From Bacteroidales bacterium (lineage in GTDB: Bacteria; Bacteroidota; Bacteroidia; Bacteroidales; Rikenellaceae), in NCBI GenBank assembly GCA_910575495.1, contig CAJTFS010000001.1, positions 186,001 through 250,000 on the forward strand: 64,000 bases of DNA, read 5' to 3'. Below are positions 37,482 through 55,027 of the stretch, one piece after another (the stretch's first letter is position 1; each line of letters opens with the position of its first letter). Both the position numbers and the translations under genes were made by a program. The notes beneath the pieces are model-generated. The model ran no database searches, was not told the origin of the DNA, and saw only the letters and a list, made by a program, of their open reading frames with translations.

Positions 37482-39461
37482 ATGAAACGTATCCTCCTGA
37501 CCTTCTTTGCGCTGCTCCTGCTCGCCCCGGCCATGGCCGACGAAGGCATGTGGCTCCCGAGCCTCATCTCGCACCGCATCCGCGACATGCGCGCCAAAGG
37601 CTTCCGCCTCACGGCCGACGACATCTACTCGATCAACAAGGCTTCGATGAAAGACGCCGTGGTGCTTTTCGACGGGGGCTGCACGGGCGAACTGGTCTCG
37701 GCCGAAGGACTGCTCCTGACCAACCACCACTGCGGCTACGACGCCATCCAGAGCCATTCGGCCGTCGAGCACGACTACCTGACCCACGGTTTCTGGGCCC
37801 GATCGCGGGCCGAGGAGCTGCCCAACAAGGAACTCAACGTCAAATTCCTGGTCCGCATGGAGGACGTCACAGACCGTATGGCGGCCGGAGAAACGGCCGA
37901 CGAGATCGTCCGCAAGGCCGAAGCCGAGGGCAAAGGCTACAAGGCAGCGGTCGAACAGATGTACTACGGCAACCAGCAGTTCCTGTTCCTCTACGAGCAG
38001 TTCGACGACGTGCGTCTGGTGGCCGCCCCGCCCTCGTCGATCGGCAAGTTCGGCGGCGACACCGACAACTGGATCTGGCCTCGCCACACCGGCGACTTCT
38101 CGGTCTTCCGCATCTACGCCGGTCCCGACAACAAGCCCGCCGCCTACTCGCCCGACAACGTACCCTTCCGCCCGCGCCGCCATTTCACGGTCTCGACACG
38201 CGGTGTCGCAGAAGGCGACTTCACGATGATCTACGGCTTCCCGGGCAACACGCAACAATATATTCTGTCGGACGTAGTGAAATACATCGCCGAGACTTCC
38301 GACCCGATGAAGATCGCCATCCGCACCGGACGGCTCGACCTCATCTCCCGGGCTCAGGAGAGCGATCCGGCGCTGCGCATCCACTATGCGGCCAAACACG
38401 CCTCGATCGCCAACGCCTGGAAGAAATGGCAGGGCGAAGTGCTGGGAATCAAGCGCCTGGGCACCTATGAAAAGAAACTGCGCACCGAACAACGGTTCGT
38501 CGAAGCCACGGGCGACGGCGAAGTGCTGCAGGAACTGAAAAACGAGTTCGCACGGGCGCTTCCCTACTACTATACGCGCGAACTGCTGGGCGAAACGCTG
38601 CTCACGCTCCGCTACGGCTTCACCGACGAGGAAAAGGCCGATCCGCTCTTCGCCAAGCGCCGCCCTGTCGAACAAGCACTGTACCGCCTGGCATTCGAGG
38701 AGTATGCCGGCCGCAGCACGATGCTCGCTCCGATTGCTGAATTCGAAGCCGGAATCAAGCAGCACGGCACGCCCGCGGCCTATGCCGACCATATCTTCGC
38801 ACTGGCGGCCGACGACCCGCAGAACCCCGAACTCATTGCACTGAAAGAAGCCATCAAAGGGCTCAGCGCCGAAATCGTCGACGAACTCGGCACCCGGTCG
38901 CTGCGCAACTTCAACAGCGCCCGCATGAACGCGCTCTACGCCCGCTACGTGGAGGGGCTGCGCCGCTGGGCAGCAGCCGAGAAACGCGAGGGCGCCATGT
39001 TCCCCGATGCCAACCTCACGCTGCGCGTAGCCTACGGCAAAGTGGCCGGCTACGAATATGCCGACGGCGAATACCACACGCCCCTGACCACTCTCGACGG
39101 CATCATCGCCAAGGACAATCCGGCGATCTACGATTACGACATCCCCCAGGCGCTGCGCGATCTCCACGCCTCGAAAGACTACGGCCGCTGGGGCATCGAG
39201 GTCGGCGGACGCCGCACGGTGCCGGTCTGCTTCCTGGCAACCAACCACACCACGGGCGGCAACTCGGGCTCGCCGATTCTGAACGGACGCGGCGAGCTGG
39301 TGGGCATCAACTTCGACCGCACGTGGCGCTCGACGATGAGCGACATCGAGTTCGACCCCACGATCTGCCGCAACATCGCCGTCGACATCCGCTATGTACT
39401 GATGGTTATCGATCGCATCGGCGGTGCCGGCTACCTGATCGACGAAATGACGCTCCGATAA
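37482..39461 (+). CDS. Exported S46 dipeptidyl peptidase, probably DPP11-type
   Basis: Serine dipeptidyl peptidase of the S46 family, which releases dipeptides from N-termini in the periplasm. It has 659 residues with signal peptide MKRILLTFFALLLLAPAMA. The catalytic His lies in LLTNHHCGYDA (82 or 83) and the nucleophile is Ser595 in TGGNSGSPIL. Arg613, 18 residues on in INFDRTW, aligns with Arg673 of Porphyromonas DPP11, where Ser655 is the nucleophile. DPP7 has Gly there. This predicts cleavage after Asp/Glu. The family is largely confined to Bacteroidota and relatives. It ends the rightward unit, and a hairpin follows. Confidence 0.93.
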   Translation: MKRILLTFFALLLLAPAMADEGMWLPSLISHRIRDMRAKGFRLTADDIYSINKASMKDAVVLFDGGCTGELVSAEGLLLTNHHCGYDAIQSHSAVEHDYLTHGFWARSRAEELPNKELNVKFLVRMEDVTDRMAAGETADEIVRKAEAEGKGYKAAVEQMYYGNQQFLFLYEQFDDVRLVAAPPSSIGKFGGDTDNWIWPRHTGDFSVFRIYAGPDNKPAAYSPDNVPFRPRRHFTVSTRGVAEGDFTMIYGFPGNTQQYILSDVVKYIAETSDPMKIAIRTGRLDLISRAQESDPALRIHYAAKHASIANAWKKWQGEVLGIKRLGTYEKKLRTEQRFVEATGDGEVLQELKNEFARALPYYYTRELLGETLLTLRYGFTDEEKADPLFAKRRPVEQALYRLAFEEYAGRSTMLAPIAEFEAGIKQHGTPAAYADHIFALAADDPQNPELIALKEAIKGLSAEIVDELGTRSLRNFNSARMNALYARYVEGLRRWAAAEKREGAMFPDANLTLRVAYGKVAGYEYADGEYHTPLTTLDGIIAKDNPAIYDYDIPQALRDLHASKDYGRWGIEVGGRRTVPVCFLATNHTTGGNSGSPILNGRGELVGINFDRTWRSTMSDIEFDPTICRNIAVDIRYVLMVIDRIGGAGYLIDEMTLR

Positions 39462-41643: not shown

Positions 41644-42639
41644 CTACCGGATCAGCGTCTCCATGATCTGCACGGCGTTGAGCGCCGCGCCTTTGCGGAT
41701 CTGGTCGCTGACGCACCAGAATGTCAAGCCGTTTTCGCAGGCCAGATCCTTGCGGATGCGACCCACGTAGACGGGGTCCTTGCCGGCGACGAAAAGCGGC
41801 ATGGGATAGACCTTGGCGGCGGGCTCGTCCATCAACACCACGCCCGGCGCTGCGGCGAAAGCCGCACGGGCCTCCTCCACCGACACGGGACGCCCGGTCT
41901 CGACCCACACGCTCTCGGAATGGGCGCGCATGACGGGCACGCGCACGCAGGTGGCCGACACCCGCACGTCGGAGTGCATGATCTTGCGTGTTTCGTTGAA
42001 CATCTTCATCTCCTCCTTGGTGTAGTCGTTGTCGGTGAAGACGTCGATATGCGGAATGACGTTGTAAGCCAGCTGGAAAGCGAACTTTTCGACGGTCGGT
42101 TCCTGCCCGGCCGTCAACTCGGCATGCTGCTTCTCAAGTTCGGCCATTGCGGCGGCACCGGCGCCGCTGGCCGACTGGTAGGTGGAGACGTGCACGCGGC
42201 GGATGTGCGACAGCCGCTCGATGGCCTGCAAGGCCACCACCATCTGGATCGTCGTGCAGTTGGGATTGGCGATGATGCGGCGCGGCGCCTGCCGGGCATC
42301 GTCGGGATTGACCTCGGGAACGACCAGCGGCACGTCGGCATCCATGCGGAACGCGCTGGAGTTGTCGATCATGACCGTGCCGTGGCGCGTGATGGTCTCC
42401 GCAAACTCGCGCGAGGTGCCGCCTCCGGCCGATACCAGAGCGAAGTCGACGCCCCGGAAGTCGTCGTTATGCTGCAACAGTCTGACCGTTACATCCTTGC
42501 CGCGGAAGCGGTAGGTACGGCCCGCGCTGCGCTCCGAGCCGAAAAGAAGCAGTTCGTCGATCGGCAGCGGCCGCTCTTCGAGAATGCGGAGGAACTCCTG
42601 TCCCACGGCCCCGCTGGCCCCTACGATTGCGATTTTCAT
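41644..42639 (-). CDS. asd: Aspartate-semialdehyde dehydrogenase
   Basis: NADPH-dependent reduction of aspartyl phosphate to aspartate semialdehyde, the branch point to Lys/diaminopimelate, Thr and Met. The 331-residue length is normal. The NADP-binding start is [19 protein letters not shown]. The active-site Cys is in [16 protein letters not shown] near residue 128. The catalytic His region reads [16 protein letters not shown]. It follows the PBP1A gene by 40 bases on the same strand, and a terminator lies at 41447. Confidence 0.97.
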
Positions 42640-45620: not shown

Positions 45621-48608
45621 TCAGAACGGCAGGCCCACCGATGCCGAGACCCACACCTTGCCGCTGGAAGGACGGTAGCATGAAATCTTGAACGTCGAAG
45701 TGGCCGAAGCGGGCTGCCCGAAGAAGTTGACATCGAAGATCAGATCGCCGCCGACCGACCAGATGCGCCGCCGCACCATGCTGCCGTCCGCGACATCGCG
45801 CGCGGGCCGGTAATCGCGGAACTGGGCGTAGTCGCCGCCGACGTTGACCCGGATGCGCTTGAAGTAGAGCACCGAGGCGATGCCGCCCTCGGGATACCAT
45901 ACGGGAAGCTGGTAGTCGGCCCGGGCGGCCAGGTAGTTGTTCGAAAGGATATCGCCCGAACCGAAGCCGCGGGGAATCAACCGCGAAGAACGGTAGCTCA
46001 GCGGCGCATAGCCCGACGGGAACTTGTAGCCGCCGACCGAAGTCTGGTAGCTGGCCGCGACCTGGAACGAATGGTGCCGCACGAAACCCGGCAGGTAGAA
46101 ACGTGCGTAAGTCGAGACCAGATCGCTGAAATTCTTGTCCGAGGGGTTGAAGGTGTAGCCCGCCGAGAGCGAATAACCCCAGCGCGGCGCGAAATCGCGG
46201 TAGGCCTGCCGCACGTAGTCGGAGAAACCGATGCTGAAAGCCAGCTTGTGGAGTCCTTCGTGGAAGCCGATCCGCTCCAGGTTGGTGATGTTGCCGTCGG
46301 TCCACTCGATGCGTCCCAGGTTGGCGACCATGCCGTTGGAGTAGTTCCAGCCGGTCGAGAGGGTGAGCTGGCGCGAATGGTAGCCGCACTGGAAATAGAG
46401 CGGCAAGGTGGCCGAAAGACCCACGGAGTAGTATTTGTCGGGCGAAAGGCGCTCGGGCGTCACGAAGAATCCGGTCTTTGCATCGTAGGCCGGCAGCATC
46501 CTCGCCTCGTCCCGGCGGAAAGGCGCATAGAAGATCTGGTCGCCGCCGTAGGCCGCGCTCAGATCGAAATGGACGCCCAGGCCGAAGTAGCGCGCCCCGA
46601 GCCGCCAGATGGAACCCTCGCGGCGGTTCCAGCCGTAGGAAGCGTAGGCCTCGGTGTTCGACAGGAGGTTCTGGGAAAGGAGCGTGGCGCCCAGATTGAG
46701 TTCGATGACATGCTCGTCGACGGCAGCGAACGGATCGAACGCCACGGGCATCCAGCTATGGATGTTGATCAGATTGGGTGCCTTGCGGTAACGCCGCGTG
46801 CGGAACTGGCGGCGCTGGAGGGTCGAATCGGCCGACGTGAAAACCACCGTATCGAGGTTGACGACCGGCCACGACCTGCGCGGCGGGTTGACCGCATTGT
46901 CGGGAAGCCGGGCATGGCTCACGGGAATGAGCGCACTGTCGGCCAACGGCTGCACGGCAGGCCGGTAACCGCGCCTGTCGTAGGTCGTGACCAGCACGCT
47001 GCCGTCGGCAGGGGCCGGATCGAAAGAACCGTAATCCGAAGTCGTGATGCGGTATTCGCGGCGGCCGAGCAGATCGAAGCAATGCACCTCGTCCTTGCCC
47101 GACGCGATCGAGCCGTAGTAGAGACGTCCGTTCCCGGCCCTCAGGTCGGAGAGGGTGACGTAGGCGCCCTGCGTGACCGCATGCACCCCCTCGCAGTCGA
47201 TGCGGCCGATCCACATGCCGCTGTCGTCGGTCACAAGCACGTACCACGCCACCGTGGTGTCGTCCCAGGCCAGCCCGTGGATTTCGGCCCGGCGCGGTGC
47301 GGCGAAACGCCGGCGCGAGCCGTCGGATTTCGAGACGACAACGGCATAGGAACCGTCGTAGTTGTACTCCACCCAGCCGGTTCCGCCGTCGCCGGGCGTG
47401 GGATAGAGCACCCGGCGCTCACCGCTCACGGCGCGGGGCCGGCGCTCGGCGAGGTCCATCCTGCAAAGCTGCGAATTGACGCGCTGCTCGAAGAGCTTCG
47501 AACGCCGGTATTCGGTCCACCACACCCGGCCCTCCGCATCCAGCGCCGGGCGCGTGGAGAGCGAACCGACATAAGCCACGAAGCGCTCGGCACCGCTCTC
47601 CCGGTCGATCTCGACGAAGCGTTCGGGCCTGTCGAAGTCATTCTTGAGAACCAGAACCCGCCCGTCGGGCAGCGGGAGAGGCCAGCGGTAGACGGTATAG
47701 TTGTCATCGGGAAGCTCGCGGAGCGGCAAGGCGCTGTCGCCGGTCTTCGGCAGCGAATCCCAACAGGCATGCAGGTTGTCGAAAGTCTCGCGGAAGAGCT
47801 GCGAAACGCTCGTCTTGTAGAACTTGCGCAGAGACACGGCGGTGACGGCAATGACGTAGGGATTGCGCGAACCGTACCAGGCAACCTTGTCCCACACGTT
47901 CTCGCCGTACTTGTCGTAAGCATAGGAACAGAGCTGGTAGCCGAGCTCGTAGTGGTCGGGGACATGCGAGAGGTAGGAACCGCAGAACCACTTGTCGAGG
48001 TTGCGACGCTCGCGGCCGATGTTGCCCATGGCGCGGTAGGCCATGGAGAACGATGGCTGCAATCCGCGGCCGTAGGAGGACATGGCGGTCTCGGTCATGA
48101 CGGCGTCGCCCTCCAGGGCCCAAAGGGGCATGCACAGCAGTCCGATGGTGGAACCCTGCTGCCCGAGGATGTAGCTCAGCACCCGGATGAGGCCCCGGTC
48201 GAGGTTGTTGTACTGCACGGCGTGCCGGTACTCGTGGGCCACCAGCTGCTTGCACCACGGCATGGAGTAGCTGTCGACGGCGGGCGCCGTGAGAAACTCG
48301 ACGCGCTTGGGCAGATACATGACCAACCCGTTGGAACGGAAGTTCTCGGGGTGCATGACGAACGGAATGCGCATGGGGCCGTGGCGGAACCCGAAGCCGA
48401 TGTCGGGCCGGACGCTGCGGATGTAGAAAAGCGTGCGGTCCGCCAGGTCGGAGACCGTGTCGGGATAGATGATCCGCACGTCGGGAGTGCGGACGGTCGA
48501 CCAACGCAGATTCGCGGGATCGGAACCCCAAGTATAGTACTGCGCACGCAGGGACCTCGCTGCCAGCAGGGCGGCGAGCACGAAGAGTATGCGGAGCGTT
48601 CTTTCCAA
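45621..48608 (-). CDS. Exported HExxH metallopeptidase-like / beta-propeller / outer-membrane barrel protein
   Basis: The 995-residue product begins with a signal peptide, MERTLRILFVLAALLAARSL plus RAQ. Residues about 30-270 resemble a peptidase-MA-type gluzincin. The zinc motif is HEYRH (125-129, in LVAHEYRHAVQYNN), and a third-ligand candidate Glu166 is in LWALEGDAVMTE. Residues about 300-640 contain repeated blade-like segments of the TolB/WD propeller kind. From about 660 the sequence is rich in alternating aromatic strands and ends in VSASVGLPF, a C-terminal Phe typical of outer-membrane beta-barrels. It is likely outer-membrane and degradative or processing. The function is unknown. The domain reading is inferred from motifs. 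Confidence 0.7.
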   Translation of the reverse strand: MERTLRILFVLAALLAARSLRAQYYTWGSDPANLRWSTVRTPDVRIIYPDTVSDLADRTLFYIRSVRPDIGFGFRHGPMRIPFVMHPENFRSNGLVMYLPKRVEFLTAPAVDSYSMPWCKQLVAHEYRHAVQYNNLDRGLIRVLSYILGQQGSTIGLLCMPLWALEGDAVMTETAMSSYGRGLQPSFSMAYRAMGNIGRERRNLDKWFCGSYLSHVPDHYELGYQLCSYAYDKYGENVWDKVAWYGSRNPYVIAVTAVSLRKFYKTSVSQLFRETFDNLHACWDSLPKTGDSALPLRELPDDNYTVYRWPLPLPDGRVLVLKNDFDRPERFVEIDRESGAERFVAYVGSLSTRPALDAEGRVWWTEYRRSKLFEQRVNSQLCRMDLAERRPRAVSGERRVLYPTPGDGGTGWVEYNYDGSYAVVVSKSDGSRRRFAAPRRAEIHGLAWDDTTVAWYVLVTDDSGMWIGRIDCEGVHAVTQGAYVTLSDLRAGNGRLYYGSIASGKDEVHCFDLLGRREYRITTSDYGSFDPAPADGSVLVTTYDRRGYRPAVQPLADSALIPVSHARLPDNAVNPPRRSWPVVNLDTVVFTSADSTLQRRQFRTRRYRKAPNLINIHSWMPVAFDPFAAVDEHVIELNLGATLLSQNLLSNTEAYASYGWNRREGSIWRLGARYFGLGVHFDLSAAYGGDQIFYAPFRRDEARMLPAYDAKTGFFVTPERLSPDKYYSVGLSATLPLYFQCGYHSRQLTLSTGWNYSNGMVANLGRIEWTDGNITNLERIGFHEGLHKLAFSIGFSDYVRQAYRDFAPRWGYSLSAGYTFNPSDKNFSDLVSTYARFYLPGFVRHHSFQVAASYQTSVGGYKFPSGYAPLSYRSSRLIPRGFGSGDILSNNYLAARADYQLPVWYPEGGIASVLYFKRIRVNVGGDYAQFRDYRPARDVADGSMVRRRIWSVGGDLIFDVNFFGQPASATSTFKISCYRPSSGKVWVSASVGLPF

Positions 48609-48610
48609 GG

Positions 48611-48958
48611 TCAGCTGCCGGCTTTCTTGCAGCGGTAACCGCTGCGGGTCAGAAGATCGACGACCCGGTCGCGGTGATCGCCCTGGATGATGATTTCACC
48701 CTCCTTGGCAGCCCCGCCGACGCCGCACCGGGTCTTCAACAAACGCGCCAGAGCCTGCAGGTCGTCGTCGCGGCCCACGAAACCGCGCACGAGCGTGACG
48801 ACCTTGCCGCCCCGCTGCTTGCGGTCGAGCCACACGCGCAGCTCCTGCCGCTCGGGAGCGAGCGTCTCGGGCTCCTCGTCGTGCCGGGTCGTATATGCGA
48901 AGTCGGGATCGGTCGAATAGACCATTCCGAGCCGCGATTTCCAGTCGTTGTCAGCCAT
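48611..48958 (-). CDS. SUI1/eIF1-like translation factor (YciH family)
   Basis: The 115-residue protein starts at ATG 48958 (MADNDWKSRLGMVYSTD). The open frame extends upstream without homology. It matches the SUI1/YciH fold with KQRGGKVVTLVRGFVG (about 47-62), LKTRCGVGGAAKEGEIIIQG (74-93) and GDHRDRVVDLL. Bacterial members resemble eIF1 and may influence start-codon selection, although their role in bacteria is not settled. The leader contains CTTTTCACTTTTCACCTT repeats. The large metallopeptidase-barrel gene follows 2 bases after its stop. Confidence 0.92.
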   Translation of the reverse strand: MADNDWKSRLGMVYSTDPDFAYTTRHDEEPETLAPERQELRVWLDRKQRGGKVVTLVRGFVGRDDDLQALARLLKTRCGVGGAAKEGEIIIQGDHRDRVVDLLTRSGYRCKKAGS

Positions 48959-49226: not shown

Positions 49227-49232
49227 CATACG

Positions 49233-50315
49233 ATGAAAGCCAAGAAGCACGAAATAAATCTTTCCCGCCGCACGCCGGAATCCGACCGGCTGCCGCGCCC
49301 GCTGCCGGCCGAGCCGGGGCAGCGGCTGGTGCGGGTCTTCGTCGAGGGATACGAAGACGTGGCCTTCTGGCGCGGCATCTTCGACCATTTCCGCAACCCC
49401 TACCTGCGCTTCGAGATCTCGGTGCCCGTGCGCGACGACCTGCCCAAAGGCAAGAAGGTGCTGCTGAACATGATACCCGAGTCGTGCGAGAACCTGCTGC
49501 TGTGCGTCGACTCCGACTTCGACTACCTGTTCGCCGGGCGCACGGCGCAGTCGGCCGAGGTGGCGGGCGCGCGCCACATGTTCCACACCTACGCCTACGC
49601 GACGGAAAACTACCTCTGCTACGCACCCTCGCTGCACAACGTCTGCGTCAAGGCCACGAAGAACGACACGCGCATCTTCGACTTCGTGGCTTTCATGCGC
49701 GACTACTCGTGCACGATCTACCCGCTGTTCGTGTGGTACGCCTACTCGGCCCAGCTCTCCACGGAACACGTGTTCCCGCTCATCGACTTCAAGTCGGCGG
49801 TGCGGCTGGGCTATCTGGACATCGAGGACAACGGCGCCCGCACGCTCGAATGGCTCGCCCGCAACGTGGAGAAGCGCCACCGGCTGCTGTGCCAGCGCAA
49901 TCCGAAGATGATCGAACCGATGAAAGCGTTCGAACTGCTGCTCCGCGAGCGCGGCGTGACCCCCGAGACGACCTATCTTTTCATGCACGGCCACACGCTC
50001 ATGGACAACGTGGTGATGGTGCTGCTCAACTCGGTGTGCGAGAAACTGCGGCAGCTCTCCATCGCCAAGATCAACGCGTCGAAGAAACAGGGCGTGGCCC
50101 TGCGCAACGAAATGGCCAACTACACCAACTCGCTGCGCTCGATCCGCGACGTGCTGCTCGACAACGAGAACTACACGCGCTGTCCGCTCTACAAACGGCT
50201 GCAGCGCGACATCCAGAAATACATCGTCCGCACCATCGTCGGCATGAAACGCAGCGGCGAAATCCGCGACGACTCCTACTGGAACATCATCTCGAAAATG
50301 AAAAGCCCGGAATGA
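49233..50315 (+). CDS. DUF4435 protein with TOPRIM-like motifs
   Basis: The 360-residue protein starts at ATG 49233 (MKAKKHEINLSRRTPESDRL). Further upstream the frame is open but runs through repeats. RVFVEGYEDVAFW (Glu38) and LLLCVDSDFDYLF (Asp93, Asp95, Asp97) match the Glu and DxD motifs of a TOPRIM fold, as expected for DUF4435. The C-terminal half is helical and rich in Arg and Lys. DUF4435 proteins often occur with AAA ATPases in OLD-like nuclease or defence systems. None is adjacent here. A DNA- or RNA-processing role is likely but unproven. Confidence 0.82.
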   Translation: MKAKKHEINLSRRTPESDRLPRPLPAEPGQRLVRVFVEGYEDVAFWRGIFDHFRNPYLRFEISVPVRDDLPKGKKVLLNMIPESCENLLLCVDSDFDYLFAGRTAQSAEVAGARHMFHTYAYATENYLCYAPSLHNVCVKATKNDTRIFDFVAFMRDYSCTIYPLFVWYAYSAQLSTEHVFPLIDFKSAVRLGYLDIEDNGARTLEWLARNVEKRHRLLCQRNPKMIEPMKAFELLLRERGVTPETTYLFMHGHTLMDNVVMVLLNSVCEKLRQLSIAKINASKKQGVALRNEMANYTNSLRSIRDVLLDNENYTRCPLYKRLQRDIQKYIVRTIVGMKRSGEIRDDSYWNIISKMKSPE

Positions 50316-50571: not shown

Positions 50572-51846
50572 TTATTTACTCTGCTCGGGCGCCTCGGCTT
50601 TCCGCACGACGCGAACCGTCGACTGGGTGGCCTGGCGGATGAAGACGCGGGGGCCGGAGGCGTAGTGCTGCCACAGCTCGTCGGTATAACCGCGGACGGT
50701 CAGCAGCTCCATCCGCTCGATCTTCATGACGTCGAAACCCTCCTCGCGCAGCGCGGCGACGGCCTGGTCGACATGCCACGAATCGTCGATGCAGAGACTC
50801 AGATTGACGGCCGAGTTGTGGATCAGGTTGGTCTTGATGCGATAGCGCTCCAACAACGAGAAGATGGCGGCGAACTTCTCCTCCAGGACGAACGAAAAGT
50901 CGCGCGAACGGATCGTGAGCAGAACCTGATCCTTTTTGAGAATCAGGATCGGAACCTCGACGGGCGCCGACACGCCGCGGATGACGGTGCCGGGCTTGCG
51001 CTTGTCGCCGAACGGCCGCACGTAGAGCGGGATGTTGCTGTTCTGCAAGGGCTTGATGGTGCGCGGATGGATGATCTGCGCCCCGCTGTAAGCCAGTTCG
51101 ATGGTGTCCAGATAGTTGAGCTCGGCGATCTGCACGGCGTCGGGGAAAATCTTGGGATCGGCGTTGAGCACGCCGTCGACATCCTTCCACACCGCCATCG
51201 ACTCGGCCCCGAGGATGTTGGCCGCCACGGCCGCCGAATAGTCGGAGCCCTCGCGTCCGAGGGTCGTGGTCGTGCCGTCGGGAGCTCCGCCGATGAAGCC
51301 CTGTCCCACGAAAACACGCTCCGGGCGCCCCTCCACCTCGGCCCGCAGGCGCGGAGCAGAAGCGGCCAAGTCGACCTCAGCGTCCTTGTGCCGCTGCTCG
51401 GTGACCAGCGCCCGGCGCATGTCGACCCAGCGGTTGGGGACCCCCGCATAGGCCAGGTATTCGGAGATGATGCTCGTGGAGATCAGCTCGCCGAAAGCCA
51501 CGATGCGGTCGTACCACAGCTCGGCATCCTCCTCGCGGCAGACACCCTCGGCGGCCGTCCGTTCGAGCTCGGCAAAGAACGCTTCGACGCGCTCGAGCTG
51601 CGTGGGACCGTGCCACAGATCGTCGACGATCGCGGCATGGCAGGCACGCAGGGCGGCGACCTCCTCCAGCGCCCCGGTGCGATCGCCGCGCTGCAAGCCG
51701 GCGAAAACGCGCTCCAAAGCGTTGGTCGTCTTGCCCATGGCCGAGACGACGATGAACAGATCGCGTTCGTCGCCTATGATCTTCAGCAGGTTGCGCACGC
51801 CGTCGGCATTGCGCACCGAAGCTCCTCCGAATTTGTAGACCTTCAT
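50572..51846 (-). CDS. lysC: Aspartate kinase
   Basis: First step of the Lys/Thr/Met/diaminopimelate pathway: phosphorylation of aspartate. It has 424 residues from ATG 51846 (MKVYKFGGASVRNADGVRNL), the family start motif KFGG. Other motifs are VSAMGKTTNALE, FGELISTSII and GREGSDYSAAVAANILGA in the kinase fold. Two ACT-like regulatory segments follow (ILILKKDQVLLTIRSRDFSF and VAALREEGFDV). No homoserine dehydrogenase is fused. The prolyl oligopeptidase gene ends 7 bases upstream, so the two share a transcript. Confidence 0.95.
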   Translation of the reverse strand: MKVYKFGGASVRNADGVRNLLKIIGDERDLFIVVSAMGKTTNALERVFAGLQRGDRTGALEEVAALRACHAAIVDDLWHGPTQLERVEAFFAELERTAAEGVCREEDAELWYDRIVAFGELISTSIISEYLAYAGVPNRWVDMRRALVTEQRHKDAEVDLAASAPRLRAEVEGRPERVFVGQGFIGGAPDGTTTTLGREGSDYSAAVAANILGAESMAVWKDVDGVLNADPKIFPDAVQIAELNYLDTIELAYSGAQIIHPRTIKPLQNSNIPLYVRPFGDKRKPGTVIRGVSAPVEVPILILKKDQVLLTIRSRDFSFVLEEKFAAIFSLLERYRIKTNLIHNSAVNLSLCIDDSWHVDQAVAALREEGFDVMKIERMELLTVRGYTDELWQHYASGPRVFIRQATQSTVRVVRKAEAPEQSK

Positions 51847-51853
51847 CGGCAGC

Positions 51854-53989
51854 TTACTTTTTGACGGGTCGGTAGGGCACGCCGATGTTCTGGAACAGGA
51901 AAGCGTACATGTCCGCAGCCTCGTCGATGCGTTTCGAGGTGGGTTTGCCTGCGCCGTGACCGGCATTGGACTCGATGCGGATCAGCACGGGAGCATCGCC
52001 GGCCTGGCAGTGCTGGAGCTCGGCAGCGAACTTGAACGAGTGGGCCGGCACGACGCGGTCGTCGTGGTCGGCCGTCATGACCAGCGTAGCAGGATAGGTG
52101 ACACCCTGCTTGATATTATGCAGCGGCGAATACTTGTAGATATAGCCGAACTGCTCCTCGTTGTCCGACGAACCGTACTCGACGGCCCAGCCCCAGCCGA
52201 TGGTGAACTTATGGTAGCGCAGCATGTCCATCACGCCCACCGACGGCAGGCAGACGGCATAGAGATCGGGACGCTGCACCTCGCAGGCGCCGACCAGCAG
52301 ACCGCCGTTGGAACCGCCGTGGATAGCGAGCCGGTCGGACGACGTATATTTCTGAGCGACAAGATATTCGGCCGCCGCGATGAAGTCGTCGAAGACGTTC
52401 TGCTTGTTGGCCAGCATGCCGGCCTTGTGCCACTCTTCGCCGTACTCCGAACCGCCGCGCAGATTGGCCACGCAGTAGATGCCGCCCTGCTCGACGAACA
52501 TCAGCGCCGAGGGGTTGAATCCGGGCGTGAGGTTGATCTGGAAACCGCCGTATGCGTAGAGCAGGCAGGGATTCGAGCCGTCGAGCTCCATGTCCTTGCG
52601 GTGGGTGACGAACATCGGCACGCGCGTACCGTCCTTCGAAGCATAGAAGACCTGGTCGGTGACGAAGAGTTCGGGATCGAAGCCGATTTCGGGAGCCTTG
52701 AAAAGAACCGACTCGCCCGTAGCGATGTCGTAGCGGTAGATGGTCGCAGGCGAGAGGTAGTTCGACAGCGAATAGTAAAGGGAGGTCTGCTCCTTCTTGC
52801 CGCCGAAGCCGCCGACCGTGCCGATGGCCGGCAACCCGACCTCGCGGACAAGCGAACCGTCGTAGGCATACTGGGCCACCTTGTGCTGCGCGTCCTGCAG
52901 ATAGATGGCGAACAGCGAACCGCCGGCGGTCGAAACGCCCTCCAGCAGGCACTCCTTCTCCGGAATGACCGTCACGGGCTTGCCGGGGGTCGTCAGCGAA
53001 ATCTTGCGGAGGGCATAGTTCGAAGCACCCTCGTTGGTCGTATAGTAGAGTTCGTCGTTCTTGCAGTCGACGATGCCGTAGTCGTGGTCGAAACCTTTCA
53101 GCAGCGTGCGGAAGCGGCTGTCGTTCACGCGGCGGCAGAGGATTTCGGAACCCGACGTACCCTCCGACCCGACAACGAAAAGCCATTCGCCGTCGTCGCT
53201 CGGCCAGGCCGAGAAGTAACGCAGCGGATGGGCCGGGTCGTCGTAGACCAGCACGTCTTCCGACTGCGGCGTACCGAGCGCGTGGTAGTAAACCTTCTGG
53301 AACTGGTTCTGCGACGAGTAGACGCCCGCTTTGGGAGCATCGTAGGCGCTGTAGTAGAAGCCCTTGGAGTCGGGAGCCCACGTGGCGCCCGAGAACTTCA
53401 CCCACTCGATGTGGTCGTCGGTCAGCTTGCCCGACGCCACGTCGATCACGCGGATCTCCACCCAGTCGGAACCCGACTCGGCCACGGAATAGGCGCAATA
53501 ATTGCCGTCCTCGGAGAACGACACGTCGGACAGCGCCACCGTCCCGTCGGCCGACAAGGCGTTGGGATCGAGGAAGACGCGGCCCTTGGCGTCGGGCGTA
53601 TCGGCGCAGTAGAGCACCGACTGGTTCTGAAGCCCGTTGTTGTAAAACCAGTACCAGGCATCGCCGTGCCGGGAGGGAATGCCCTGCTTGGGGTAGTTCC
53701 AGAGCTCGGCGAGGCGCTGGCGGATGGCCCCGCGGAACGGAATCTGCGAGAGGTAGTCGTCCGTCACGGCGTTCTCGGCGGCGACCCAGGCGGCCGTAGC
53801 CTCCGAGTTGTCGTCCTCGAGCCAGCGGTAGGGGTCGGCCACCTTCGTGCCGAAGTAGTCGTCGACCACCTCGCCGCGCGCGGTGTCGGGATAGGGCTGA
53901 TGCTTGATCTGTTTCATCTGCGTGCAACTTGTTGCAATCATCGCGACGACGCCCACCAGGAGCACGGCCGCACGTACCGGTTTGATCAT
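51854..53989 (-). CDS. Lipoprotein prolyl oligopeptidase (S9A)
   Basis: Serine peptidase that cuts after proline in oligopeptides. It has 711 residues from ATG 53989, with lipoprotein signal MIKPVRAAVLLVGVVAMIAT followed by SC. Mature motifs are PYPDTARGEVVDDYFGTKVA and DPYRWLEDDNSE, then a seven-blade propeller. In the alpha/beta-hydrolase domain the nucleophile is Ser560 (HGGSNGGLLVG), with Asp in TADHDDRVVPAHSFK and His in ESNAGHGAGKPTSK. The lipid anchor places it in the envelope. A -7 box lies upstream and the lysC gene follows. Confidence 0.95.
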   Translation of the reverse strand: MIKPVRAAVLLVGVVAMIATSCTQMKQIKHQPYPDTARGEVVDDYFGTKVADPYRWLEDDNSEATAAWVAAENAVTDDYLSQIPFRGAIRQRLAELWNYPKQGIPSRHGDAWYWFYNNGLQNQSVLYCADTPDAKGRVFLDPNALSADGTVALSDVSFSEDGNYCAYSVAESGSDWVEIRVIDVASGKLTDDHIEWVKFSGATWAPDSKGFYYSAYDAPKAGVYSSQNQFQKVYYHALGTPQSEDVLVYDDPAHPLRYFSAWPSDDGEWLFVVGSEGTSGSEILCRRVNDSRFRTLLKGFDHDYGIVDCKNDELYYTTNEGASNYALRKISLTTPGKPVTVIPEKECLLEGVSTAGGSLFAIYLQDAQHKVAQYAYDGSLVREVGLPAIGTVGGFGGKKEQTSLYYSLSNYLSPATIYRYDIATGESVLFKAPEIGFDPELFVTDQVFYASKDGTRVPMFVTHRKDMELDGSNPCLLYAYGGFQINLTPGFNPSALMFVEQGGIYCVANLRGGSEYGEEWHKAGMLANKQNVFDDFIAAAEYLVAQKYTSSDRLAIHGGSNGGLLVGACEVQRPDLYAVCLPSVGVMDMLRYHKFTIGWGWAVEYGSSDNEEQFGYIYKYSPLHNIKQGVTYPATLVMTADHDDRVVPAHSFKFAAELQHCQAGDAPVLIRIESNAGHGAGKPTSKRIDEAADMYAFLFQNIGVPYRPVKK

Positions 53990-54199: not shown

Positions 54200-55027
54200 A
54201 TGTACGAAGAACTGAAAACCGTCGTCGAACGCACGTGGGACGACCGCGCGCTGCTCGCCGGCACCGAAGCACAGGAAGCGGTACGCCGCACGGTAGAACT
54301 GGTCGACAAGGGAGCGCTGCGCTGCGCCGAACCCGTCGATGCGGAAAAAAGCGAGTGGCGGGTGAACGAATGGGTCAAGAAAGCCGTGATCCTCTACTTC
54401 CCGATCCAGCCCATGCGCAAGATGGAGGCGGGCGAACTGGAGTGGTTCGACAAAATGGAGCTGAAGCACGGCTACGAAGCGCTGGGCGTACGGGCCGTGC
54501 CCCATGCCGTGGCGCGCTACGGCGCCTACATAGCTCCGGGAGCCATTCTGATGCCCTCGTACGTCAACATCGGCGCCTACGTTGGCGCCGGTACGATGGT
54601 CGACACCTGGGCCACGGTGGGCTCGTGCGCCCAGATCGGCGAACACGTCCACCTCTCGGGCGGCGTGGGCATCGGCGGAGTGCTGGAACCCGTGCAGGCG
54701 GCCCCGGTCATCATCGAGGACAACTGCTTCGTGGGGTCGCGCTCGATCGTGGTGGAGGGGGCGCACGTATGCCGCGAAGCGGTCCTGGGCTCGAACACCG
54801 TCATCACGGGCTCGACGCACATCATCGACGTGACAGGCCCCGAGCCGGTGACCTACAAAGGCTATGTGCCGCCGCGCTCGGTGGTTGTACCGGGCAGCTA
54901 CCGCAAGCAGTTCCCTGCCGGCGAATACAGCGTTTCGTGCGCCTTGATTATCGGCCAGCGCAAGGAATCGACCGACAAGAAAACGTCGCTCAACGACGCC
55001 CTGCGCGAATTCGGTGTCTCGGCGTAA
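54200..55027 (+). CDS. dapD: Tetrahydrodipicolinate N-succinyltransferase DapD
   Basis: It adds succinate to tetrahydrodipicolinate in the succinylase route to meso-diaminopimelate and lysine. It has 275 residues. An N-terminal helical domain (about 1-100) is followed by left-handed beta-helix hexapeptide repeats (IAPGAILMPSYVNIGAYVGA and beyond). The C-terminal cap is SVVVPGSYRKQFPAGEYSVS. The motif VNIGAYVGAGTMVDTWATVG is characteristic. It is a single gene with a strong terminator at 55053. Confidence 0.97.
   Translation: MYEELKTVVERTWDDRALLAGTEAQEAVRRTVELVDKGALRCAEPVDAEKSEWRVNEWVKKAVILYFPIQPMRKMEAGELEWFDKMELKHGYEALGVRAVPHAVARYGAYIAPGAILMPSYVNIGAYVGAGTMVDTWATVGSCAQIGEHVHLSGGVGIGGVLEPVQAAPVIIEDNCFVGSRSIVVEGAHVCREAVLGSNTVITGSTHIIDVTGPEPVTYKGYVPPRSVVVPGSYRKQFPAGEYSVSCALIIGQRKESTDKKTSLNDALREFGVSA

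What the first reader, a model, noticed from the sequence alone, without database searches (positions are those of the whole stretch)
45621..48608. Large exported protein joining an HExxH metallopeptidase, a propeller and an outer-membrane barrel
The N-terminal part carries HEYRH at 125-129 and an LWALEGDAVMTE segment suited to the third zinc ligand. The middle looks like propeller blades, and the end has alternating aromatic strands and a terminal Phe typical of outer-membrane barrels. A barrel-anchored peptidase with its own propeller would be an unusual surface or periplasmic processing machine. I know of no functional description of such a protein.
Basis: partly seen in the sequence, partly recalled or inferred. 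Interest (0 to 1): 0.65.

Follow-up and report, generated by a model that had tools for sequence, protein, structure and literature searches.

The report
Outer-membrane-anchored zinc peptidase with propeller
A gut bacterium of the genus Alistipes carries a conserved, unstudied three-part protein: a zinc-peptidase-type domain and a propeller, both probably in the periplasm, joined to an outer-membrane barrel of the kind that inserts other proteins into that membrane; relatives occur in most sampled genera of the phylum Bacteroidota.

Summary
Window 45621-48608 encodes 995 aa: a signal peptide ending A|Q, a gluzincin-like peptidase domain (HEYRH 125-129, third ligand E166), a six-bladed TolB-like propeller and a 16-stranded barrel. 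A full-length AlphaFold2 model has pLDDT 90.7 and pTM 0.88. H125, E126, R128, H129 and E166 are invariant in 47 of 47 diverse relatives. It is most likely Omp85-type: 16 strands, an RG[FY]-like motif between strands 11 and 12, PDB fold matches to BamA and FhaC, and homology through sister families whose barrels are clearly Omp85. One relative passes the Pfam cut-offs for Peptidase_MA_2, PD40 and Omp85 together. So this is a divergent, peptidase-bearing relative of what Heinz and Lithgow (2014) called WD40-Omp85; their main text mentions no HExxH peptidase there, and I found no function for it in the literature held. It is widespread in Bacteroidota (265 of 392 genomes). Most likely it is a periplasm-facing zinc peptidase fixed to the outer membrane, acting on envelope proteins somewhat as BepA does. 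The architecture is well supported; activity, substrate and barrel role are inferred.

The parts
45621..48608 (-). Whole gene, 995 aa, TTG start 2 bases after the stop of the upstream SUI1 gene
48543..48608 (-). Signal peptide, residues 1-22, predicted signal peptidase I cleavage A22|Q23 (Bacteroidetes Q-rule)
   Evidence: Sequence; Q23 in 43 of 47 relatives, 3 of the other 4 gapped there; Q-rule, PMC5837995
47724..48542 (-). Gluzincin-like (Peptidase_MA-type) zinc peptidase domain, residues 23-295
   Evidence: Profile-profile match to Peptidase_MA_2 members, prob 98.2, E 4e-13; model
48222..48236 (-). HEYRH, residues 125-129: two zinc ligands and the catalytic Glu
   Evidence: Invariant in 47/47; inside helix 118-136 of the model
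48102..48122 (-). WALEGDA, residues 163-169, with E166 the predicted third zinc ligand
   Evidence: E166 invariant in 47/47; aligned to WFNEGIA of the Peptidase_MA_2 family; inside helix 162-175
46947..47696 (-). Six-bladed TolB-like beta-propeller, residues 305-554
   Evidence: 23 strands in the model; family profile hits TolB chains in the PDB, best E 6.9e-6; Foldseek hits to TolB
45624..46763 (-). 16-stranded Omp85-type outer-membrane barrel, residues 616-995, C-terminal Phe
45963..45971 (-). RGF, residues 880-882, in the loop between strands 11 and 12 (position of the Omp85 L6 VRG[FY] motif)
   Evidence: (G in 46/47, R in 38/47)
48611..48958 (-). Upstream SUI1-domain gene (115 aa), probably co-transcribed; conserved neighbour within Rikenellaceae only
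   Evidence: PF01253 E 3.8e-18; neighbourhood comparison

Best explanation
It is an exported zinc metallopeptidase anchored in the outer membrane by its own Omp85-type barrel. Shown or strongly supported: the three-domain order, the intact HExxH+E zinc site, the TolB-like propeller, and a 16-stranded barrel related to BamA-type barrels. Inferred: Sec exports it and signal peptidase I cleaves it at A|Q; the barrel is inserted in the outer membrane with both termini in the periplasm, so that peptidase and propeller hang below the membrane where POTRA domains hang from BamA; the propeller recognises or presents proteins to the active site; the enzyme trims or destroys envelope proteins, most plausibly stalled outer-membrane proteins or lipoproteins near the barrel. 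It would work like BepA at the BAM complex, but with protease, docking propeller and barrel in one chain.
For: AF2 model pLDDT 90.7, pTM 0.88. Catalytic residues invariant in 47/47; of 25 positions at least 98% identical across 47 relatives, 20 lie in the peptidase domain, as expected for an active enzyme. Peptidase profile vs Peptidase_MA_2 members: prob 98.2, E 4e-13, catalytic residues in register. TolB by sequence profile and fold. Barrel: RG[FY]-like motif between strands 11 and 12; Foldseek to BamA 4k3c/6fsu/4n75 and FhaC 4ql0; sister-family barrels vs Omp85 prob 97.9 and 96.4 against 3.4 and 0.1 for a TonB-receptor control, and this barrel vs sister family B prob 93. Relative L233 passes Pfam for Peptidase_MA_2, PD40 and Omp85 together; L231's barrel hits BamA TIGR03303, E 2.6e-10. 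Topology: turns predicted to face the periplasm are more conserved (mean 0.53) than loops predicted to be outside (mean 0.26) (averaged). BepA precedent: PMC8423444.
Against: No direct functional data. The barrel's direct profile match to Omp85 is marginal (prob 23.6, E 9e-4) and no Pfam Omp85 hit is reported. The peptidase domain folded alone gave a poor model (pLDDT 59.9). Metal-site geometry could not be measured. There is no conserved gene neighbour outside Rikenellaceae, so no partner points to outer-membrane protein quality control.
Confidence: 0.45

Rival explanations
1. Surface-delivery model: the Omp85-type barrel passes the peptidase-propeller part through itself to the cell surface, as proposed for the patatin-Omp85 PlpD, and the peptidase acts on host, dietary or competitor proteins outside.
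For: Precedent of PlpD as described in PMC4104836.
Against: Extracellular loops are the least conserved part and periplasmic turns more so. The passenger is a large folded propeller that the model predicts with high confidence. No link to gut life: relatives occur across 143 of 174 sampled Bacteroidota genera.
Confidence: 0.15
2. Assembly-factor model: the protein is mainly a specialised insertase or chaperone (a BamA-BamB-like fusion) for particular outer-membrane proteins, and the peptidase is a secondary proofreading or maturation activity.
For: Omp85-type barrel with an RG[FY]-like motif and a TolB-like propeller, the reading Heinz and Lithgow gave for WD40-Omp85.
Against: Strict conservation is concentrated in the peptidase site, not in the barrel or propeller. 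There are no POTRA domains.
Confidence: 0.25
3. Inactive scaffold: the HExxH fold is kept only for structure and the protein is an anchor for the propeller.
For: A distant paralogue, L249, has lost HExxH, so the fold can survive without the site. No assay exists.
Against: HExxH plus E166 is invariant in 47 of 47 members of this group, and HExxH is present in nearly all sister-family members read.
Confidence: 0.08

Closest known systems
WD40-Omp85 subfamily (Heinz and Lithgow 2014, PMC4104836)
   Same: TolB-like propeller N-terminal to an Omp85-type barrel, no POTRA domains
   Different: The main text describes no HExxH peptidase domain in this class; here a gluzincin-type domain precedes the propeller. 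The barrel is too divergent for Pfam Omp85 to be reported.
Peptidase_MA_2 (PF13485) + PD40 + Omp85 proteins of Bacteroidota (e.g. L231-L234)
   Same: Same domain order and catalytic residues; profile homology E 5e-30 over profile positions 5-719
   Different: A separate, better-annotated sister family of about 1050-1130 aa; this protein scores below the cut-off for all three Pfam models
BepA (M48 metallopeptidase, E. coli)
   Same: Exported zinc metallopeptidase acting at the outer membrane beside an Omp85 barrel (PMC8423444)
   Different: BepA is a separate soluble protein of another peptidase family, with TPR repeats instead of a propeller and no barrel of its own
PlpD (patatin-Omp85, Pseudomonas aeruginosa)
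   Same: Enzyme domain fused to an Omp85-type barrel
   Different: Lipolytic enzyme delivered to the surface; no propeller
TolB
   Same: Six-bladed propeller fold, detected by sequence profile and fold
   Different: TolB is a soluble periplasmic Tol-Pal component; here the propeller lies between a peptidase and a barrel

Membership tests
Gluzincin / Peptidase MA clan | HExxH on a helix plus a downstream Glu ligand on a second helix | tested here: met
   Invariant in 47/47; helices 118-136 and 162-175 of the full-length model
Gluzincin / Peptidase MA clan | Sequence homology to known members | tested here: met
   hhalign to Peptidase_MA_2 members prob 98.2, E 4e-13; controls near 0
Pfam Peptidase_MA_2 (PF13485) | Score above the curated Pfam cut-off | tested here: not met
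   No PF13485 hit for P0001 and none in its genome; it is therefore filed as clan MA-like, not as PF13485
Gluzincin / Peptidase MA clan | Zinc binding and proteolysis | not testable with these tools
   Needs biochemistry
Omp85 superfamily | 16-stranded C-terminal barrel | tested here: met
   16 strands, full-length 616-992, in the model; BamA and FhaC fold matches
Omp85 superfamily | VRG[FY]-type motif in extracellular loop 6 (between strands 11 and 12) | tested here: met
   PRGF 879-882 in exactly that loop; G 46/47, R 38/47
Omp85 superfamily | Direct sequence match to Pfam Omp85 (PF01103) or strong profile match | tested here: inconclusive
   No Pfam hit; direct profile prob 23.6 vs 0.5 for the TonB control; indirect through sister family B (93, then 96.4)
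Omp85 superfamily | POTRA domains (typical, not required of WD40-Omp85) | tested here: not met
   Propeller and peptidase occupy the N-terminal side; WD40-Omp85 is likewise a non-POTRA class
WD40-Omp85 | TolB-like propeller N-terminal to the barrel | tested here: met
   TolB profile hit E 6.9e-6, fold, 23 strands in the model
TolB | N-terminal TolB domain and Pal partner | tested here: not met
   N-terminal domain is the peptidase; Pal interaction not tested

The most novel reading that the evidence does not exclude
A conserved Bacteroidota machine in which an Omp85 barrel captures or inserts outer-membrane proteins and its own tethered zinc peptidase cuts them on the spot: a single-chain assembly and proofreading device, unlike the separate BamA and BepA of Proteobacteria.
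Probability: 0.2. Interest if true: 0.8.

Novelty: new variant of a known kind. Interest (0 to 1): 0.5.

Why it matters
Bacteroidota build their outer membrane with unusual machinery (two 2025 cryo-EM papers on their BAM complex, PMC12611786 and PMC12578637); the word peptidase does not occur in the main text of either. A phylum-wide protein with an intact zinc-peptidase site fixed to an Omp85-type barrel would be a direct candidate for an outer-membrane proofreading enzyme, and the class called WD40-Omp85 would gain an enzymatic activity that can be tested with one point mutation.

Tried and rejected
Plus-strand reading of the locus: 855-aa antisense ORF, rejected as a shadow ORF. HMM/phmmer of the protein alone against PDB, Pfam and NCBIfam: nothing significant. 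Best single guess DUF2268 (PF10026, E 0.039, below cut-off) not adopted. Assigning PF13485 outright: not met. Peptidase domain folded alone: poor (pLDDT 59.9), so not used for a fold search. TonB-receptor barrel as alternative barrel type: controls negative. First hhalign run against BamA alone failed (prob 0; few, near-identical sequences) and against lipoprotein-type Omp85 gave prob 47 with different settings; repeated with default settings these fell to 1.1 and 4.9, and only the merged Omp85 set (23.6) and the sister families are used in the argument. Functional partner by gene neighbourhood: none conserved beyond Rikenellaceae. BepA/M48 absence as an argument for replacement: Alistipes does have M48 proteins, so not used. 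Subunit of the published Bacteroidota BAM complex: the Flavobacterium subunits named in PMC12611786 (BamA, D, G, H, M, P) do not match by description, and the Bacteroides propeller subunit BamI is described with an N-terminal Ig-like domain only. Plasmid records: none for this protein; a Salinibacter plasmid carries a sister-type protein annotated 'basic secretory protein-like protein'.

Full report
WHAT IS THERE. Window 45621-48608 on the minus strand is one open reading frame of 995 aa that starts at TTG, two bases after the stop codon of a 115-aa SUI1-domain gene. The window lies in an Alistipes-like genome (Rikenellaceae): the nearest named matches are Alistipes genomes at 65-79% identity. 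Same-genus genomes carry it nearly universally (23 of 24), and 12 of 17 genera among the relatives have it. A family profile finds it or sister families in 265 of 392 genomes and 143 of 174 genera sampled across Bacteroidota. So it is a real, conserved gene.

EXPORT. The N-terminus is a typical signal peptide ending in A22|Q23. Q23 is kept in 43 of 47 diverse relatives; three of the other four have a gap there. This fits the Bacteroidetes Q-rule for signal peptidase I substrates (PMC5837995).

STRUCTURE. AlphaFold2 with a 74-sequence alignment gave mean pLDDT 90.7 and pTM 0.88 for the mature protein. From N to C it shows a mostly helical domain, a propeller of 23 strands (six blades) and 16 strands at the C-terminus. 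HEYRH lies on helix 118-136 and E166 on helix 162-175 (full-length numbering = model numbering + 21). Foldseek against the PDB returned TolB and other propellers for the middle, and BamA (4k3c, 6fsu, 4n75, 5or1) and FhaC (4ql0) for the end. I could not read coordinates, so the metal-site geometry and barrel closure are not measured.

PEPTIDASE DOMAIN. No Pfam model reaches its cut-off, but a profile of residues 30-295 aligns with members of Peptidase_MA_2 (PF13485) collected from the phylum at probability 98.2, E 4e-13, with HEYRH on HELTH and WALEGDA on WFNEGIA; control sets scored near zero. In 47 diverse relatives H125, E126, R128, H129, Q132, E166, G167, D168, A169, E173 and T174 never vary. 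Of the 25 positions that are at least 98% identical, 20 are in this domain. I infer an active zinc peptidase. A caveat: the domain predicted alone gave pLDDT 59.9, so its fold rests on the full-length model and on the profile match.

PROPELLER. The family profile hits TolB chains of the PDB (best E 6.9e-6), and sister-family members hit TIGR02800 TolB down to E 3e-35.

BARREL. Direct Pfam Omp85 hits are absent and the direct profile match is marginal (probability 23.6 against 0.5 for TonB receptors). Three further lines make an Omp85-type barrel the best reading. First, there are 16 strands with PRGF (879-882) in the loop between strands 11 and 12, where Omp85 proteins carry VRG[FY] in loop 6. 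Second, the fold matches. Third, a homology chain: this barrel matches sister family B (prob 93), and the barrels of families A and B match Omp85 at 97.9 and 96.4 (controls 3.4 and 0.1); the whole protein is homologous to family B over profile positions 8-931 (E 6e-53) and to family C over 5-931 (E 1e-75). One family A member, L233, passes the Pfam thresholds for Peptidase_MA_2, PD40 and Omp85 in one chain, and another, L231, hits the BamA model TIGR03303 at E 2.6e-10.

TOPOLOGY. With 16 strands and the N-terminal domains in the periplasm, the short turns face the periplasm and the long loops face out. The turns have mean conservation 0.53 and the loops 0.26 (averages over segments printed). 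The conserved side is thus the one carrying the peptidase and propeller, which favours a periplasmic role over a surface role. This is an inference from conservation.

NEIGHBOURS. Within Rikenellaceae the SUI1 gene sits just upstream, and in Alistipes a penicillin-binding protein 1A gene lies downstream; in other families the neighbours differ. No partner gene points to a pathway.

HOW IT MOST LIKELY WORKS. Shown or strongly supported: export signal, peptidase site, propeller, Omp85-type barrel. Inferred: the barrel anchors the protein in the outer membrane, the propeller gathers client proteins, and the peptidase cuts envelope proteins beneath the membrane. The nearest functional analogue is BepA, a zinc peptidase that promotes or destroys LptD on the BAM complex (PMC8423444); here protease, docking platform and barrel are one polypeptide. 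The alternatives (surface delivery as in PlpD, mainly an assembly factor, inactive scaffold) are listed with their tests.

RELATION TO THE KNOWN. Heinz and Lithgow (2014, PMC4104836) defined a WD40-Omp85 subfamily with a TolB-like propeller and, in the text read, described no HExxH peptidase domain in it (their 'Metallo' class is PF00149); their proposal was a BamA-BamB-like fusion. I infer that at least part of that class in Bacteroidota carries this gluzincin domain, since L233 has Omp85 and PD40 matches above cut-off and also Peptidase_MA_2. I found no experimental description in seven literature searches, and the two 2025 papers on the Bacteroidota BAM complex do not report such a subunit in the passages found.

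Noticed in passing
L249 (G085:C46:111500-116500): A sister-family protein of about 1100 aa with TolB-like propeller and an RGF barrel motif has lost HExxH: a possible inactive paralogue that could help separate enzyme from scaffold function.
   Followed up: partly
G032:C2 125610-131451 (includes L030): One genome of the order carries two adjacent copies of this gene in tandem, about 1000 aa each.
   Followed up: no
window 49227-50315 (+): DUF4435 protein (PF14491, E 2e-32) encoded on the opposite strand beside the SUI1 gene; an ORF of the same cluster sits beside this gene in several Alistipes genomes.
   Followed up: no
window 37482-39461 (+) and 51854-53983 (-): Two further peptidases within 10 kb: a Peptidase_S46 (DPP7/DPP11 type) and a prolyl oligopeptidase (S9) with its own propeller.
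   Followed up: partly
window 41647-42639, 50575-51846, 54200-55024: Semialdehyde dehydrogenase, an amino-acid kinase (aspartokinase-like) and tetrahydrodipicolinate N-succinyltransferase genes (lysine/diaminopimelate pathway) lie scattered around the locus, beside a penicillin-binding protein 1A gene.
   Followed up: partly
window 46071-48638 (+): 855-aa antisense ORF across the gene; similar long antisense ORFs occur over it in other GC-rich Alistipes genomes and could be mis-annotated as genes.
   Followed up: partly
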